From Hellea sp. (GTDB lineage: Bacteria > Pseudomonadota > Alphaproteobacteria > Caulobacterales > Maricaulaceae): DNA of 33,527 nucleotides. The stretch lies in assembly GCA_020629195.1 (NCBI GenBank), contig JAHDDT010000012.1:1-33527 (forward strand), in the 5' to 3' direction. Made by a program: the position numbers and the translations under genes. The notes under the pieces are model-generated. The model worked only from the letters and a program-made list of their open reading frames with translations, had not been told where the DNA came from and searched no databases. Positions 9,541-31,446 of this stretch are shown here, piece by piece; within the stretch, counting starts at the first letter, position 1, and every line of letters begins with the position of its first letter.

Positions 9541-10923
9541 ATGCGCTTAGCTGTCTGCACTTTATCAGCGGTATTACTCTCAGGCTGTTCTTGGCTTGGT
9601 GGTGTTGGCAATGTCTTTAATGGCGGCGGCCAAGGTCATCATGCTAAATCTTCGCACTATCAATATGGCGGTGGACATCACCGGCAGCACCAATATCAAG
9701 CTCAGCGTGACCCTTGCCAAGTTTTCTCGCCAAAAGCGCCGATTCCGCAAGGCTGTCACCCCTCTCAGGTCACGCTTGGTACTGCGGGCGGTTTTCCGCA
9801 ACAGCCTAGCTTCGGCGTGCCAGCGCAGGGCCGCGGCCAATATGCGAGCCAAGGTTATGGCTCTCACGCAGGTGTTGCGCATCAACAAGCTGCACATTAT
9901 GGTCCGCGTAAGAGTAAAAAGCGCAAGCCGCGTTTTCGTGGGGCGTTATCTCTAGGGGCTGAGAAAAGTATCTCTGGAGGATTACTGGATTACACAAAAC
10001 TTCCGACAATTGACCCTGTGGCTGGATATAACCCGCAGGATTACCGTGAAGCCAGAACGACAGGTAGCGAAGCTACAGGCAATATAACGACCGTTACATG
10101 GACTGCGAATCAGCAGGAGCTTTCCGGAACAGCGGTCTTAACGCCGCCAGGAACTGGCTTTTTAGGTTACGAACGCGCAAGGAACCCTGAAATTTCTTTC
10201 GATGATGTTTACAGCACGCCCACACGGCTCGCTGGCGGATTTGAATATATTGTGAATCCAAAAACCACTTTCTTTGCAAATGCCGGATATTCTCAAGCCG
10301 AAGGTAAGAGCGGCCAAGTTGCCTCTATTGATGCCACGCTTTACCGTTTGACGGAATCTCAAGATTATCAACCAGAGGATCCGGGTGTTGACGCCATGGG
10401 TAACCCAAACCCTCCGACAGGAAATTTTGTTACCGCGGGCGGCCTTCAACGTTCAACATCATTTATTCCAAATGAAGAAATTGCCCGGTTCAATTATGAT
10501 TTTACGGATATGAAGCGCCTCGATTTAGAAGCTGGTGGGCGTTATTACTTTAACCCTCTTGTCAAAAGCCAAGGTTATAAAACCTTGACGCCTTTTGTCG
10601 GGGCCGCCGTTGGCGCGTCACATTACAACGCTGTCTCTTACGATTCATCTCAGACACAGCGTTTTTACGAGCGCGCCTTTGAGAGTGGTGAAAATGATTA
10701 CTACGAAATTGTAGGCCCTAACACACGTGTTGATCTCTATGATAGTCAATGGGTTCCATCAGGTCAGTTAAACGCCGGTATGGAGTGGCAAGTTACGCCC
10801 AAATCAGCTCTCGCATTTGAAACAGGTGTCCGTGTTGAAGGCGCTCGCAAATATAGCAACGGTGAACGTGGCGATAAAAATATAGCAATTCCGATGACAA
10901 TCAGAGGAAGTTACAACTTTTAA
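9541..10923 (+). CDS. Putative outer-membrane lipoprotein with His/Gln-rich N-terminal segment and C-terminal beta-barrel-like domain (paralog 1)
   Basis: 460 aa; lipobox LSGC at Cys16; low-complexity GGGQGHHAKSSHYQYGGGHHRQHQYQ; alternating C-terminal strands ending IPMTIRGSYNF. GGAGGAACGAG RBS upstream. Confidence 0.85.
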   Translation: MRLAVCTLSAVLLSGCSWLGGVGNVFNGGGQGHHAKSSHYQYGGGHHRQHQYQAQRDPCQVFSPKAPIPQGCHPSQVTLGTAGGFPQQPSFGVPAQGRGQYASQGYGSHAGVAHQQAAHYGPRKSKKRKPRFRGALSLGAEKSISGGLLDYTKLPTIDPVAGYNPQDYREARTTGSEATGNITTVTWTANQQELSGTAVLTPPGTGFLGYERARNPEISFDDVYSTPTRLAGGFEYIVNPKTTFFANAGYSQAEGKSGQVASIDATLYRLTESQDYQPEDPGVDAMGNPNPPTGNFVTAGGLQRSTSFIPNEEIARFNYDFTDMKRLDLEAGGRYYFNPLVKSQGYKTLTPFVGAAVGASHYNAVSYDSSQTQRFYERAFESGENDYYEIVGPNTRVDLYDSQWVPSGQLNAGMEWQVTPKSALAFETGVRVEGARKYSNGERGDKNIAIPMTIRGSYNF

Positions 10924-10933
10924 CTAAATAACT

Positions 10934-10956
10934 GGAAACCTTAAGGTTTTGTTTCC
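10934..10956. repeat. Inverted repeat in the gap between paralogs 1 and 2 (GGAAACCTTAAGGTTTTGTTTCC)
   Basis: Contains the perfect palindrome AAACCTTAAGGTTT (10936-10949) and an alternative GGAAAC/GTTTCC pairing. At best a weak terminator or attenuator. Confidence 0.3.
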
Positions 10957-11034
10957 GATTTAGAAACGAAATTTTAAGCATACAGTGTTTTAAATTGGGA
11001 CAGTTAGTCTTTTAACGAGAAAAGGGAGGCCGAT

Positions 11035-12417
11035 ATGCGGCTTGCAGTTTGCGCTTTATCAGCGGTTTTATTGTCAGGGTGTTCCTGGCTGGGTATGGGC
11101 GGTCACGGATCTGCAGGCGGGGCCTATGGTGTAAACTGTGCTCCCACTGGAACGGGATATTACGCTGGCGGCGGAAGCGCGGGAGCATGTGGCGTTGGCG
11201 GCGGTTACGGCGTCGCAGGTAACGGTTATGGCGCGGGCGCAGGTTATGGTGCTGGTGCAGGCTACGGTGCAGGCGGTGCTGGATATGGCACAGCAGGCTA
11301 CGGAGCGGGCGCGGGTTACGGGGCTGCGGGTTACGGCTCAGGTGCTGGCGCTGGATATGGGGCCGCTGGTTACGGTACAGGCGCTGGATACGGTGCAGGC
11401 GGATATGGCGCGGGTGCTGGTTTTGGCGGCGTAGGCGCTGGCTTAGCGGCGAATGGCGTCGGCGCAGGTTACGGCGTTAACGGATATAATCTTCAAGGCT
11501 TCCAAGGTGCGTATGGCGCAAATGGCGGCGTAACAACACTTGGCGCGAATGCAGGATATGGATCTGCTGTTTACGGACAAAATGTTGTCGGCACGCAATA
11601 TGGCAATGGTCAATATGTCCAAGGTGCTGGCGTACAAACAATACAAGGCGCGCCTTATTATGTGCCGCAGCCTTATCCCGCTTATTACGGCGTTCCGCAG
11701 CTTCGCGGCGTTGGTGCGGCTCTTCCATTCGCTTTTGAAACAGGCATCGGGACAGAATTTGACATTGGCGGCGATGTCTTTGGCGGCAAAGAAGAAAGCC
11801 CTAACGGTGCTGATTTCGCCAGCTCAACAGCGCGTATTGGTGAACTTGATGCGATTAGCTATGACGATGCCTTTAAGAAAGGCATCAGCCTCGGCGGTAA
11901 TCTAGCCTATGACGTGTCACGCAATACAACACTGATTGGTGGCTTGGGTTATTCTAAGCGTAAAGGCCAGACACTTGAAAATGGTACATTTGAGCCGGGT
12001 TCCTATGACTCAGCAGGTAACTTTACATCAAGCGGCCCTGTTGAAACAGTAACAGCTGAATATTCAGACCTTGAAGAGTGGAAACTCGAAGGCGGCGTAC
12101 GTCAATATATGGGTTATAATCCAGTATTCCGTCCTTATGTCGGCGCCACAGGCGGCTTCACACATAATAATGGTGTCGATGTCACACAGACATCGTCTGG
12201 CGGAACTTTGACAGCTGCAGCCAATACGCAAGAATTTATCGATAGCGGATGGCGTCCAACAGCAGCAGGCGTAATAGGCGCAGAGATGGCTGTAGGGTCA
12301 CGTGCGGCGCTGGGTGTTGAGACAGGTATTCGCTGGCGCGATAATCTTGACACAAATACGAAGTCTGATGACCGTTGGTCTATCCCAGTCTCTCTACGTG
12401 GCCGGGTTGCCTTTTAA
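11035..12417 (+). CDS. Putative outer-membrane lipoprotein with Gly-Tyr-Ala repeat segment and C-terminal beta-barrel-like domain (paralog 2)
   Basis: 460 aa; N-terminus MRLAVCALSAVLLSGCSWLG nearly identical to paralog 1; GYGAGAG-type repeats; C-terminal domain aligns with paralogs 1 and 3 and ends IPVSLRGRVAF. Confidence 0.85.
   Translation: MRLAVCALSAVLLSGCSWLGMGGHGSAGGAYGVNCAPTGTGYYAGGGSAGACGVGGGYGVAGNGYGAGAGYGAGAGYGAGGAGYGTAGYGAGAGYGAAGYGSGAGAGYGAAGYGTGAGYGAGGYGAGAGFGGVGAGLAANGVGAGYGVNGYNLQGFQGAYGANGGVTTLGANAGYGSAVYGQNVVGTQYGNGQYVQGAGVQTIQGAPYYVPQPYPAYYGVPQLRGVGAALPFAFETGIGTEFDIGGDVFGGKEESPNGADFASSTARIGELDAISYDDAFKKGISLGGNLAYDVSRNTTLIGGLGYSKRKGQTLENGTFEPGSYDSAGNFTSSGPVETVTAEYSDLEEWKLEGGVRQYMGYNPVFRPYVGATGGFTHNNGVDVTQTSSGGTLTAAANTQEFIDSGWRPTAAGVIGAEMAVGSRAALGVETGIRWRDNLDTNTKSDDRWSIPVSLRGRVAF
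11199..11478 (+). repeat. Degenerate Gly-Tyr-Gly-Ala repeat tract inside paralog 2
   Basis: Encodes GYGVAGNGYGAGAGYGAGAGYGAGGAGYGTAGYGAGAGYGAAGYGSGAGAGYGAAGYGTGAGYGAGGYGAGAGFGGVGAG, with Tyr (or Phe) spaced by short Gly/Ala runs. Confidence 0.92.
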
Positions 12418-12442
12418 TTAACCCAAAAATAACTATGAATAC

Positions 12443-12472
12443 AAAAGCCCGGGTCAAACGCCCGGGCTTTTT
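12443..12472 (+). terminator. Strong rho-independent terminator after paralog 2
   Basis: AAAAGCCCGGG-TCAAACG-CCCGGGCTTTTT perfect stem, 25 nt after the stop codon. Confidence 0.93.
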
Positions 12473-12602
12473 GCATTTTCTTTAAGACTTTTCCCTATGG
12501 AGCCGTCCCATAAATATGAATTGGCCTTTTCTTTGCAACGTTCCGTTTCAAATCTGAAGTTCAAGGCAATTGTGCCAATTCGTAACAACAGGGAATGGAT
12601 TT

Positions 12603-13457
12603 ATGCGTATTTTATTAGCAGGTGCGGCAGCTATCGCACTTTCAGGGTGTTCTTTTTTAGGATTAGGTGGAAACAAAGACTATAAGAACTACGGTTACAA
12701 CGCACAGACTGGCAATTACGGCTATCAAGCTGATAAAGTTGCGCCTAAGGGCTGTCATAGCGGTCAATGTTTAAGCCGTTGGAATCTCGAAGGCGCCATA
12801 GGCCCATCATTCGCTGTTGGTGGCCATGCTGTGACTGGCGATAAAATGAATGCGGCGCCTCGCACTTCGGTTCGCAATCTTGATAATAGCGACATCTTCG
12901 ATACGGGTTATCGTGCCGAACTTGGCGGGTCTTACGCTCTAAGTCCAAATCGTAAGATCACGGGTAACGCATTTGTTGAAAATGCCAATGGCGGCGATGT
13001 TGTAGATTGGGGCACGCTTAATGGAGCGTCACTCCAAGGCGGTTTATCTGATTATCAGACATATGGTGCCGAGATCGGTCTTCGTCAGTATTTTGCGCCG
13101 CGTAAAGGACTGATTCTTAAGTCTGTTCGCCCATATGTAGAAGGTAAACTCGGTGCAGCGCATTTGGACGATATCACTTTAAACAACGTCACCACTACAG
13201 CTGGCACAACGGTGAATAATGTTGCTGATCTTCCTTTTTACGAAGGAGGTTGGGTTCCAACGGCAGCGGGTATGATTGGTTTTGAAACGCCTGTCGCTAA
13301 ATATACAACAATAGGTCTTGAGACAGGTCTGCGTTATACAGGTGTACCAAAAACGGATACATCAGCAATTCGTCCAGGAACAGCCTTGTCAGGTGCAAAT
13401 AATGGCGGCGCGCGTTATTCCGTGCCTGTCATGCTACGGGGCCGCTACCGCTTCTAG
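12603..13457 (+). CDS. Putative outer-membrane lipoprotein with short Asn/Tyr-rich spacer and C-terminal beta-barrel-like domain (paralog 3)
   Basis: ORF 12570-13457; ATG at 12603 gives MRILLAGAAAIALSGCSFLGLGGNKDYKNYGYNAQTGNYGY. Lipobox LSGC; C-terminal GGWVPTAAGMIGFE, GLETGLRY, VPVMLRGRYRF. Confidence 0.85.
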   Translation: MRILLAGAAAIALSGCSFLGLGGNKDYKNYGYNAQTGNYGYQADKVAPKGCHSGQCLSRWNLEGAIGPSFAVGGHAVTGDKMNAAPRTSVRNLDNSDIFDTGYRAELGGSYALSPNRKITGNAFVENANGGDVVDWGTLNGASLQGGLSDYQTYGAEIGLRQYFAPRKGLILKSVRPYVEGKLGAAHLDDITLNNVTTTAGTTVNNVADLPFYEGGWVPTAAGMIGFETPVAKYTTIGLETGLRYTGVPKTDTSAIRPGTALSGANNGGARYSVPVMLRGRYRF

Positions 13458-29569: not shown

Positions 29570-30475
29570 TCAAAACCTCAATTCATCCCCAGCGGTCTTT
29601 ACCTTCTGAATCCGCCTCTGCTCCTGCCGAAAATTTTCATAGCGTTCCGTAATATTTGGATGCGTTTTTGACGTTTTTTGAAACTCCGCATGGGGGTGAG
29701 CGGCGTCTTTCCAATAGCTTATAGCGCGGTCAATATCATATCCCGCGCGGGACATCATCACGAGGGCCATCCGGTCAGCTTTCAGCTCCAATGCCTTTTC
29801 TTTTCTCTGATGACCTTTAATCGCGTGGGCCATTTCATGGGCGATTATGAGGGCGAGGTTTACATCATCTGGAACCGTTTTCATCAATTCTGAGGTGATA
29901 ATAATTTGCTCACCGTCTGTGTGGCCATTGGCTTTATCATTGAAGAAAACATTGACGGGGTAATCGCATATCGTTTCAGGTTTCACCGTTAGGGTAAGCC
30001 GTTTTTCACCGCGCCGAATGTCAAGCTTAGCGCTTTTGCGCCGATAGGCATTTTGCGTGGCGACTTTAAAAAAGCGCTGCACCGTAAACCCGCCTGGCAT
30101 ATATGCGCCGTTAATGCCCGTGATTACATCTCCCGTTCTAAGCCCACTTTCATCTGCGGGAGACCCTTTACGGACCGTCCGCACGGAGAGACGTTCTGTG
30201 GCGCCCATCAAGACTTCGGCAAAGGGCTGTAAATTAGGTTGATAATCCGAGAGCGTATGGACCGTCATGCCAATATCGCGAGTGGTTTGAGGACAGAGCT
30301 CCATATTAGCTTTGAGGAGCGGCGCGGCAACTTTTTGAAGGCGTGTATTATAGCTTTGATGCTCTTTTAATATGGCTGCGAAAGCGAGCTCATTTTTTGT
30401 GCGGGGGATATAATCTGCGGCCATTACCGGGGCTGTTAAAGCCAGAACAGCCAAACTTAAAACGGCGCGTTTCAT
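29570..30475 (-). CDS. M48 family metalloprotease with PDZ domain
   Basis: 301 aa; signal peptide; PDZ-like VRKGSPADESGLRTGDVITGING; zinc motif IIAHEMAHAIKGHQ; downstream ELKAD. Confidence 0.92.
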   Translation of the reverse strand: MKRAVLSLAVLALTAPVMAADYIPRTKNELAFAAILKEHQSYNTRLQKVAAPLLKANMELCPQTTRDIGMTVHTLSDYQPNLQPFAEVLMGATERLSVRTVRKGSPADESGLRTGDVITGINGAYMPGGFTVQRFFKVATQNAYRRKSAKLDIRRGEKRLTLTVKPETICDYPVNVFFNDKANGHTDGEQIIITSELMKTVPDDVNLALIIAHEMAHAIKGHQRKEKALELKADRMALVMMSRAGYDIDRAISYWKDAAHPHAEFQKTSKTHPNITERYENFRQEQRRIQKVKTAGDELRF

Positions 30476-31446
30476 GACTTATTATCATCTGTTTTGAAAT
30501 TCGGGATGAGGGGCTGCCCCGCCGCTTGTTTTGCCCTAATCTCGGCCCGTGCGGCGGCAATAGAGAGGTAGCGGTTTGGATAGGTTGGGTGGGTTTTGGC
30601 ACGCGCAACATGTTTTGGATTTGTGACCGCTAATCGCCGCCAGAAGTCTTCAACGCCTTCAGGGCTATATCCAGCCCGTACCATGTAATACAGTCCGACA
30701 TAATCCGACTCTGACTCAAAAGGCCGTGTATAACGTGTGCCGCCGAGAGAAAGAATGATATTGCTGACGATTTTGCGGATATGGCCCATCGTATTATGAC
30801 CGAGCTCGTGACCGATAATCAGAGCGAGCTCATCATCATTTTTAACGAAATTCATCATGCCCGTTGTCATGGTGATGTTTCGCCCATCCGCATAAGCATT
30901 AATGGTCGAAGTCTGCGCGAGCCGCACATTATAACCACATACGGTGTCTGATGTGACGGTGATGGGCATTTTGTTATTGCTGCGCTGGATCTGCACAGTC
31001 TCCCCCGCATTAAGCTGCGCCTGAATCGCTTTACTATTTGGCGTAGTGACTTTGCCTTTGCTGGTTAGAAACTGATCCCCTGCTTTCAATCCCGCCGCCT
31101 CTGCCGCTGAGCCTTTTACAACTAACCTTATAGACGGCTCTTCACCTGCGCCGAGCTCACGCTTAGCCGCAGGACGCAAGGCTTTGGGGTAGTTTTTCAG
31201 GCTGTGCATGATCACACCAATATCTTGCCGCGTTTTTGGGCAGAGTTCTGTATTCGCTTTTAGAACGGGTAAAGCGACTTGCATCAGGCGCTGTTGCTGT
31301 CGCTCCAAATCCTCAAAGGCTAAAGCTTCTTGGCGAGTTTGTTCACCAGAAATTTGTGGCGCTGTAATATCAGGGAGCCTTGTGGAGACACTGGCGCATC
31401 CCCCCCAAACGCCCCCTAAAATTAAGGCTGATAAGAAGATTCTCAT
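30472..31446 (-). CDS. M48 family metalloprotease with PDZ domain, lipoprotein
   Basis: 324 aa; lipobox-like GGVWGGC; VVKGSAAEAAGLKAGDQFLTSKGK; zinc motif IIGHELGHNTMGH; ESESD. Overlaps the downstream paralog by 4 nt. Confidence 0.92.
   Translation of the reverse strand: MRIFLSALILGGVWGGCASVSTRLPDITAPQISGEQTRQEALAFEDLERQQQRLMQVALPVLKANTELCPKTRQDIGVIMHSLKNYPKALRPAAKRELGAGEEPSIRLVVKGSAAEAAGLKAGDQFLTSKGKVTTPNSKAIQAQLNAGETVQIQRSNNKMPITVTSDTVCGYNVRLAQTSTINAYADGRNITMTTGMMNFVKNDDELALIIGHELGHNTMGHIRKIVSNIILSLGGTRYTRPFESESDYVGLYYMVRAGYSPEGVEDFWRRLAVTNPKHVARAKTHPTYPNRYLSIAAARAEIRAKQAAGQPLIPNFKTDDNKS

What the first reader, a model, noticed from the sequence alone, without database searches (positions are those of the whole stretch)
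11199..11478. Silk-fibroin-like Gly-Tyr-Ala repeat in a bacterial outer-membrane lipoprotein
Seen directly: GYGAGAGYGAGAGYGAGGAGYGTAGYGAGAGYGAAGYGSGAGAGYGAAGYGTGAGYGAGGYGAGAGFGG, with Tyr roughly every 5-9 residues separated by Gly/Ala. Synonymous codons vary between repeats (GGT TAT GGC, GGC TAC GGT, GGA TAT GGC, GGT TAC GGG). This argues that the protein repeat is maintained rather than being fresh DNA slippage. Established: GAGAGY units resemble Bombyx fibroin heavy chain, and Gly/Tyr-rich segments can self-associate or be oxidatively cross-linked. Inference: a self-assembling or adhesive surface segment tethered to a barrel.
Basis: partly seen in the sequence, partly recalled or inferred. 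Interest (0 to 1): 0.72.

Follow-up and report, generated by a model that had tools for sequence, protein, structure and literature searches.

The report
Disordered Gly-Tyr linker, lipidated outer-membrane barrel
In Hellea and related marine bacteria, a protein held in the outer membrane by both a fatty anchor and a small barrel has a long, floppy, silk-like glycine-tyrosine stretch between the two; its even spacing of sticky aromatic residues is kept across species while its sequence is not, and it most likely lies inside the cell envelope rather than on the surface.

Summary
The repeat is real: the quoted peptide is exact at 11224-11430, inside a 460-aa lipoprotein (11035-12417, "B") with lipobox LSGC and a C-terminal eight-stranded OmpA/NspA/Ail-type barrel. 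B is the middle gene of a tandem cluster of three homologous lipidated barrels (A-B-C) kept in many species of one family (Hellea, Robiginitomaculaceae). Across 29 B orthologues, GAGAGY occurs in only 9 and strict (Gly-X)n alternation is not conserved. What is conserved is segment length (74-127 aa), near absence of charge (27 of 2978 residues), Gly (median 43%), about 14% aromatics with unusually even spacing, and paired cysteines: in 74 A/B/C proteins the extra Cys count is always 0, 2 or 4. That is the signature of a prion-like sticker-and-spacer disordered region, not of silk. The barrel topology puts the linker on the periplasmic side, and an eight-stranded barrel has no channel for threading. 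The surface-adhesin reading is therefore unlikely, although self-association remains plausible. Best model: a double-anchored, disulfide-looped periplasmic linker making multivalent weak aromatic contacts with itself, its paralogues or peptidoglycan. No function has been shown. New variant of a known kind, of moderate interest.

The parts
9541..10923 (+). Gene A: paralogous lipoprotein (460 aa), lipobox LSGC, ~115-aa Gly/Gln/His/Tyr linker with Cys pair (C59, C72) and basic stretch before an eight-stranded barrel
11035..12417 (+). Gene B: 460-aa lipidated barrel protein that holds the repeat
11035..11082 (+). Lipoprotein signal MRLAVCALSAVLLSG with lipidation Cys16; Ser17 follows
   Evidence: sequence; SGC invariant in 16 orthologues
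11137..11190 (+). Conserved cysteine pair C35 and C52 (codons 11137-11139 and 11188-11190), probable disulfide loop
   Evidence: C35 invariant, C52 nearly so; extra Cys always even in 74 proteins
11224..11430 (+). Gly/Ala/Tyr repeat (residues 64-132), predicted disordered, no charged residue
11632..11709 (+). Conserved box VQTIQGAPYYVPQPYPAYYGVPQLRG between repeat and barrel
   Evidence: P213, Y214 invariant; P207, Y209, V210, Q212, P215 nearly so
11728..12414 (+). Eight-stranded OmpA/NspA/Ail-like beta-barrel, C-terminal strand WSIPVSLRGRVAF
   Evidence: AlphaFold, Foldseek
12443..12471 (+). Terminator-like hairpin AAAAGCCCGGGTCAAACGCCCGGGCTTTT; suggests A-B and C are separate transcripts
12603..13457 (+). 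Gene C: paralogous lipoprotein (284 aa), ~40-aa Tyr/Asn/Gly linker with Cys pair, same barrel family

Best explanation
B is an outer-membrane protein anchored twice in the same membrane, by an N-terminal lipid in the inner leaflet and by a C-terminal eight-stranded barrel, so that its ~200-residue uncharged linker forms a loop in the periplasm. A disulfide near the lipid closes a small sub-loop. The linker is a prion-like, sticker-and-spacer disordered region: Tyr/Phe every ~5-7 residues on a Gly/Ala/Gln spacer. It most likely makes many weak contacts, with other copies, with the linkers of A and C, or with peptidoglycan sugars, and so clusters these barrels and couples the outer membrane flexibly to the wall. 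Shown by computation: gene anatomy, lipobox, barrel fold, disorder, conserved composition and spacing, paired Cys, family-wide synteny. Inferred: periplasmic side (from barrel topology), disulfide, multivalent contacts, clustering or wall coupling.
For: Lipobox and C-terminal barrel in every complete orthologue examined. Predicted strands 232-249, 283-295, 298-324, 337-358, 365-387, 398-420, 424-435, 447-459, with short turns at 295-298, 358-365 and 420-424, so both termini are on the short-turn (periplasmic) side. Best solved matches include OmpA, NspA, Ail and OmpX, target TM 0.46-0.70. Linker pLDDT about 30. Among 29 orthologues the repeat segment is 74-127 aa with 27 charged of 2978 residues; aromatic gap variance is below shuffles at p<0.05 in 21 of 29 and close aromatic pairs are depleted in 28 of 29. 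Extra Cys even in 74 of 74 proteins, while W, H, M and K are of mixed parity. Conserved composition and aromatic spacing with changing sequence is the stated hallmark of prion-like domains (PMC9748015). OM-associated CsgF, with aromatic stickers in its prion-like N-terminus, phase-separates (PMC10133297).
Against: No experiment. Tandem duplication by itself yields even spacing, and orthologues are not independent, so the combined p-values overstate. A linker whose only job is length and flexibility would also be Gly-rich and charge-free. The periplasmic side is deduced from topology alone. Three same-genus genomes (G001, G002, G005; 88-97% complete) lack the gene, so it is dispensable.
Confidence: 0.42

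Rival explanations
1. Passive spacer: the linker only separates lipid and barrel. Any flexible, uncharged, protease-poor sequence would do, and Gly/Ala/Tyr runs arise by repeat expansion under weak constraint.
For: Sequence turns over fast: repeat segment 74% identical with 13 gap columns against 94% and no gaps in the barrel for the nearest species. 18- and 36-bp duplications in arrays. Paralogues manage with ~40 and ~115 aa linkers of other composition.
Against: Even aromatic spacing and near-constant ~14% aromatics in sequences that no longer share the repeat unit; pN/pS 0.12-0.46 between units in Hellea-genus arrays.
Confidence: 0.3
2. One reading: surface-exposed, self-assembling or adhesive silk-like segment tethered to the barrel. 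The lipid and linker would have to reach the outer leaflet, as proposed for RcsF or known for lipidated autotransporters.
For: Surface lipoproteins exist; RcsF-type threading was proposed. G008 has nine GAGAGY units and a 64-residue strict (GX)n run.
Against: Eight-stranded barrel with N-terminus on the short-turn side; the OmpA barrel domain has no open channel for a linker (PMC7553776). GAGAGY and (GX)n are not conserved.
Confidence: 0.13
3. Contingency or antigen-variation locus: in-frame 18/36-bp repeat changes tune linker length between strains.
For: In-frame unit duplications with exact copies in L007, L009, L010, L011.
Against: Window units all differ in DNA and total length is held at 74-127 aa over genera. 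Within-species variation could not be examined.
Confidence: 0.08

Closest known systems
OmpA transmembrane domain / NspA / Ail / OmpX (eight-stranded outer-membrane barrels; Pfam OMP_b-brl PF13505)
   Same: Barrel fold, Foldseek E 5e-7 to 9e-4
   Different: Here N-terminally lipidated, with a ~190-aa low-complexity linker before the barrel; no Pfam hit for the window's own proteins
Prion-like low-complexity domains (FUS, hnRNPA1) and CsgF N-terminus
   Same: Conserved composition and even aromatic spacing without conserved sequence
   Different: Gly/Ala-rich instead of Gly/Ser/Gln/Asn-rich, practically no charge, anchored at both ends to a membrane
Bombyx fibroin heavy chain
   Same: GAGAGY hexapeptides in 9 of 29 orthologues
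   Different: No GAGAGS, alternation broken by GG and AA in most, not conserved, bacterial, membrane-bound (fibroin features from general knowledge)
Alphaproteobacterial OMPs cross-linked to peptidoglycan by L,D-transpeptidases (Brucella; Godessart 2021, via PMC10787603)
   Same: Outer-membrane barrels with an N-terminal extension on the periplasmic side in Alphaproteobacteria
   Different: There an Ala-Asp N-terminal motif is joined to the wall; here the N-terminus is a lipobox Cys and cannot be joined that way
RcsF (lipoprotein with disordered linker and disulfides)
   Same: N-terminal lipid, disordered linker, Cys pairs
   Different: RcsF has a soluble signalling domain, not its own barrel

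Membership tests
Eight-stranded OmpA/OmpX-type outer-membrane barrel | Eight antiparallel strands, short turns on one side, long loops on the other, C-terminal aromatic | tested here: met
   paralogue A also
Eight-stranded OmpA/OmpX-type outer-membrane barrel | Sequence match to Pfam OMP_b-brl (PF13505) | tested here: inconclusive
   none for the three window proteins; 2 of 21 homologues, best E 6.9e-5
Bacterial lipoprotein | Signal peptide with lipobox and invariant Cys | tested here: met
   LSGC at residues 13-16, SGC invariant in the alignment; lipidation itself not assayed
Silk fibroin-like protein | Long conserved (Gly-X)n alternation with GAGAGS/GAGAGY blocks | tested here: not met
   longest strict run 18 residues in the window and 4-18 in most orthologues; GAGAGS in none
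Prion-like low-complexity domain | Disordered, low complexity, ~15-20% aromatics evenly spaced, composition conserved rather than sequence | tested here: met
   window aromatics 15%, median 14%, at the low edge of the range
Prion-like low-complexity domain | Phase separation or reversible self-association | not testable with these tools
   needs purified protein
Surface-exposed lipoprotein of RcsF type or lipidated autotransporter of NalP type | Barrel wide enough to pass the N-terminal segment (12 or more strands) or partner porin | tested here: not met
   own barrel is eight-stranded; a partner porin was not tested
LDT-cross-linked barrel | Free mature Ala-Asp N-terminus | tested here: not met
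   N-terminus is the lipobox Cys

The most novel reading that the evidence does not exclude
The A, B and C linkers together form a condensate-like or gel-like layer on the inner face of the outer membrane of prosthecate Alphaproteobacteria: a bacterial, membrane-tethered analogue of prion-like domains that clusters outer-membrane proteins or glues the membrane to the wall.
Probability: 0.12. Interest if true: 0.8.

Novelty: new variant of a known kind. Interest (0 to 1): 0.5.

Why it matters
Low-complexity aromatic sticker regions are well studied in eukaryotes but hardly described in bacterial envelopes; the literature search combining these terms found one paper, on CsgF. A cluster of three tandem lipidated barrels whose linkers keep composition, aromatic spacing and Cys pairing while the sequence turns over is a clean natural experiment, partly in a type strain with a sequenced genome (Hellea balneolensis DSM 19091). 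If the linker self-associates, it would give a direct way to test whether bacteria organise outer-membrane proteins or couple membrane to wall through multivalent disordered contacts.

Tried and rejected
Pfam and NCBIfam: nothing for B (one sub-threshold NCBIfam lipoprotein match for C at E 0.0079, below cut-off). PDB by sequence: only a low-complexity match, 3oun, E 0.16, rejected. Fresh slippage as the sole explanation: rejected for the window (units differ in DNA), but recent duplications are clear in relatives. Silk assembly as the conserved property: rejected. Lipidated autotransporter: rejected because the barrel has eight strands. CtrA full site (TTAA-N7-TTAA): in the 220 bases upstream of A in 0 of 16, B in 1 of 28, C in 9 of 30; not seen upstream of the window's C and not pursued. 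Literature on silk-like or Gly-Tyr outer-membrane repeats: nothing relevant.

Full report
OBSERVATION. The quoted peptide is exact at residues 64-132 of ORF 11035-12417 (+), DNA 11224-11430. TRF finds 18-, 39- and 72-bp periods there. The protein starts MRLAVCALSAVLLSGC-S, a short lipoprotein signal with lipobox, and ends DDRWSIPVSLRGRVAF, a typical outer-membrane barrel end.

SURROUNDINGS. The gene (B) lies between two homologues in the same orientation: A (9541-10923) and C (12603-13457). All three have the lipobox, a low-complexity linker and a C-terminal barrel. A terminator-like hairpin follows B (12443-12471), so A-B may be one transcript and C another (inference).

DISTRIBUTION. A relative from a named genome collection, Hellea balneolensis DSM 19091 (L035), carries a B identical over the compared N-terminal 250 residues to that of G006, the nearest genome (91% identity to B). 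The window is therefore a Hellea MAG, Robiginitomaculaceae. In that family 63 of 137 genomes have a match to the B profile, most as complete B genes with neighbours from the cluster. Three genomes of the same genus (G001, G002, G005) have none. Homologous barrels occur in two other families of the order (f3, f4); those whose N-termini were read (f4) have an ordinary Sec signal, no lipobox and no linker. Another genus of the same family (g7) has a single lipidated copy with a short linker, next to the same DUF885-type and beta-lactamase-type neighbours as in the window. On a barrel tree A, B and C each form one clade with full support; the deep branching order is weakly supported. A likely history (inference): an unlipidated barrel gained a lipobox and a short linker, was triplicated at this locus, and B extended its linker.

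STRUCTURE. AlphaFold with 16 orthologues gives a mostly confident barrel from residue 232 (many blocks above 80) and disorder for residues 1-228 (pLDDT about 30). Strands group into eight, with turns of 2-6 residues alternating with longer loops, so N- and C-termini share the short-turn side, which is periplasmic in outer-membrane barrels (established for the class). Foldseek against the PDB returns OmpA, NspA, Ail, OmpX and OmpW. Paralogue A is also an eight-stranded barrel; its Cys-pair segment is modelled with moderate confidence.

WHAT IS CONSERVED IN THE LINKER. In 29 B orthologues the segment between the second Cys and the TTLG motif is 74-127 aa with 27 charged residues of 2978 in all. 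Gly is 14-51% (median 43%) and aromatics 8-17% (median 14%). Aromatic spacing is more even than in shuffles at p<0.05 in 21 of 29, and aromatics within 3 residues of each other are depleted in 28 of 29. Caveat: tandem duplication by itself gives even spacing and the sequences are related, so the combined p-values (1e-25 and below) are not to be taken at face value. The strongest argument is that species with quite different units (GQAGYGQ, GFGQQ, GMYGAG, NQGF) show the same spacing. GAGAGY occurs in 9 of 29, GAGAGS in none; the strict (GX)n run is 64 residues in G008 and 56 in G007 but 4-18 in most others. The silk likeness is thus a local elaboration.

SELECTION AND TURNOVER. Between 6-codon units, pN/pS is 0.25 in the window and 0.12-0.46 in the other Hellea-genus genomes measured. 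The unit choice is simple and includes some non-repeat units, so these are rough. G008 and G007 contain 36-bp two-unit blocks repeated with few or no changes. The array therefore grows by duplication and is then held at the protein level.

CYSTEINES. After the lipid Cys, 74 A, B and C proteins have 0 (2 proteins), 2 (65) or 4 (7) cysteines and never an odd number; W, H, M and K counts are mixed. This is the footprint of disulfides in an oxidising compartment. It was not in the finding.

MECHANISM. See the best explanation. Two membrane anchors on one chain make the linker a loop. Barrel topology puts the loop in the periplasm; the OmpA-type barrel has no open channel for threading (PMC7553776). 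Prion-like domains are described as keeping composition and aromatic patterning without conserved sequence (PMC9748015), which is what is found here. A bacterial precedent for aromatic stickers at the outer membrane is CsgF (PMC10133297). Alphaproteobacteria such as Brucella attach barrels to peptidoglycan through an N-terminal Ala-Asp motif (PMC10787603); a lipidated N-terminus cannot do that, so if B couples membrane to wall it must do so non-covalently (inference).

VERDICT. The surface-silk interpretation is only partly supported. The anatomy is solid; the function is inferred.

Noticed in passing
window 11137-11190; A, B and C genes of all loci: Extra cysteines are always even (0, 2 or 4) in 74 lipoproteins of three paralogous families; G028 has lost the pair in both A and C but keeps it in B.
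   Followed up: partly
window 12418-12602, upstream of gene C, and orthologues: The 5' region of C holds a GGCAATTGTGCCAA element with inverted-repeat ends (8-mers shared by 9-11 of 30 orthologues), and a CtrA full-site match (TTAA-N7-TTAA) occurs upstream of C in 9 of 30 orthologues but not in the window.
   Followed up: partly
window 10938-10957, between A and B: The A-B intergenic region carries CTTAAGGTTTTGTTT-like sequence; its 8-mers are shared by up to 17 of 28 orthologues.
   Followed up: no
P0002 residues ~122-134 (window ~9904-9942): Protein A has a strongly basic stretch RKSKKRKPRFRG directly before its first barrel strand, largely kept in orthologues; possible contact with lipid head groups or the wall.
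   Followed up: no
window 29570-31446: Two adjacent PDZ/M48-type metalloprotease-like genes in tandem on the minus strand, both with putative signal sequences (named from the sequence only).
   Followed up: no
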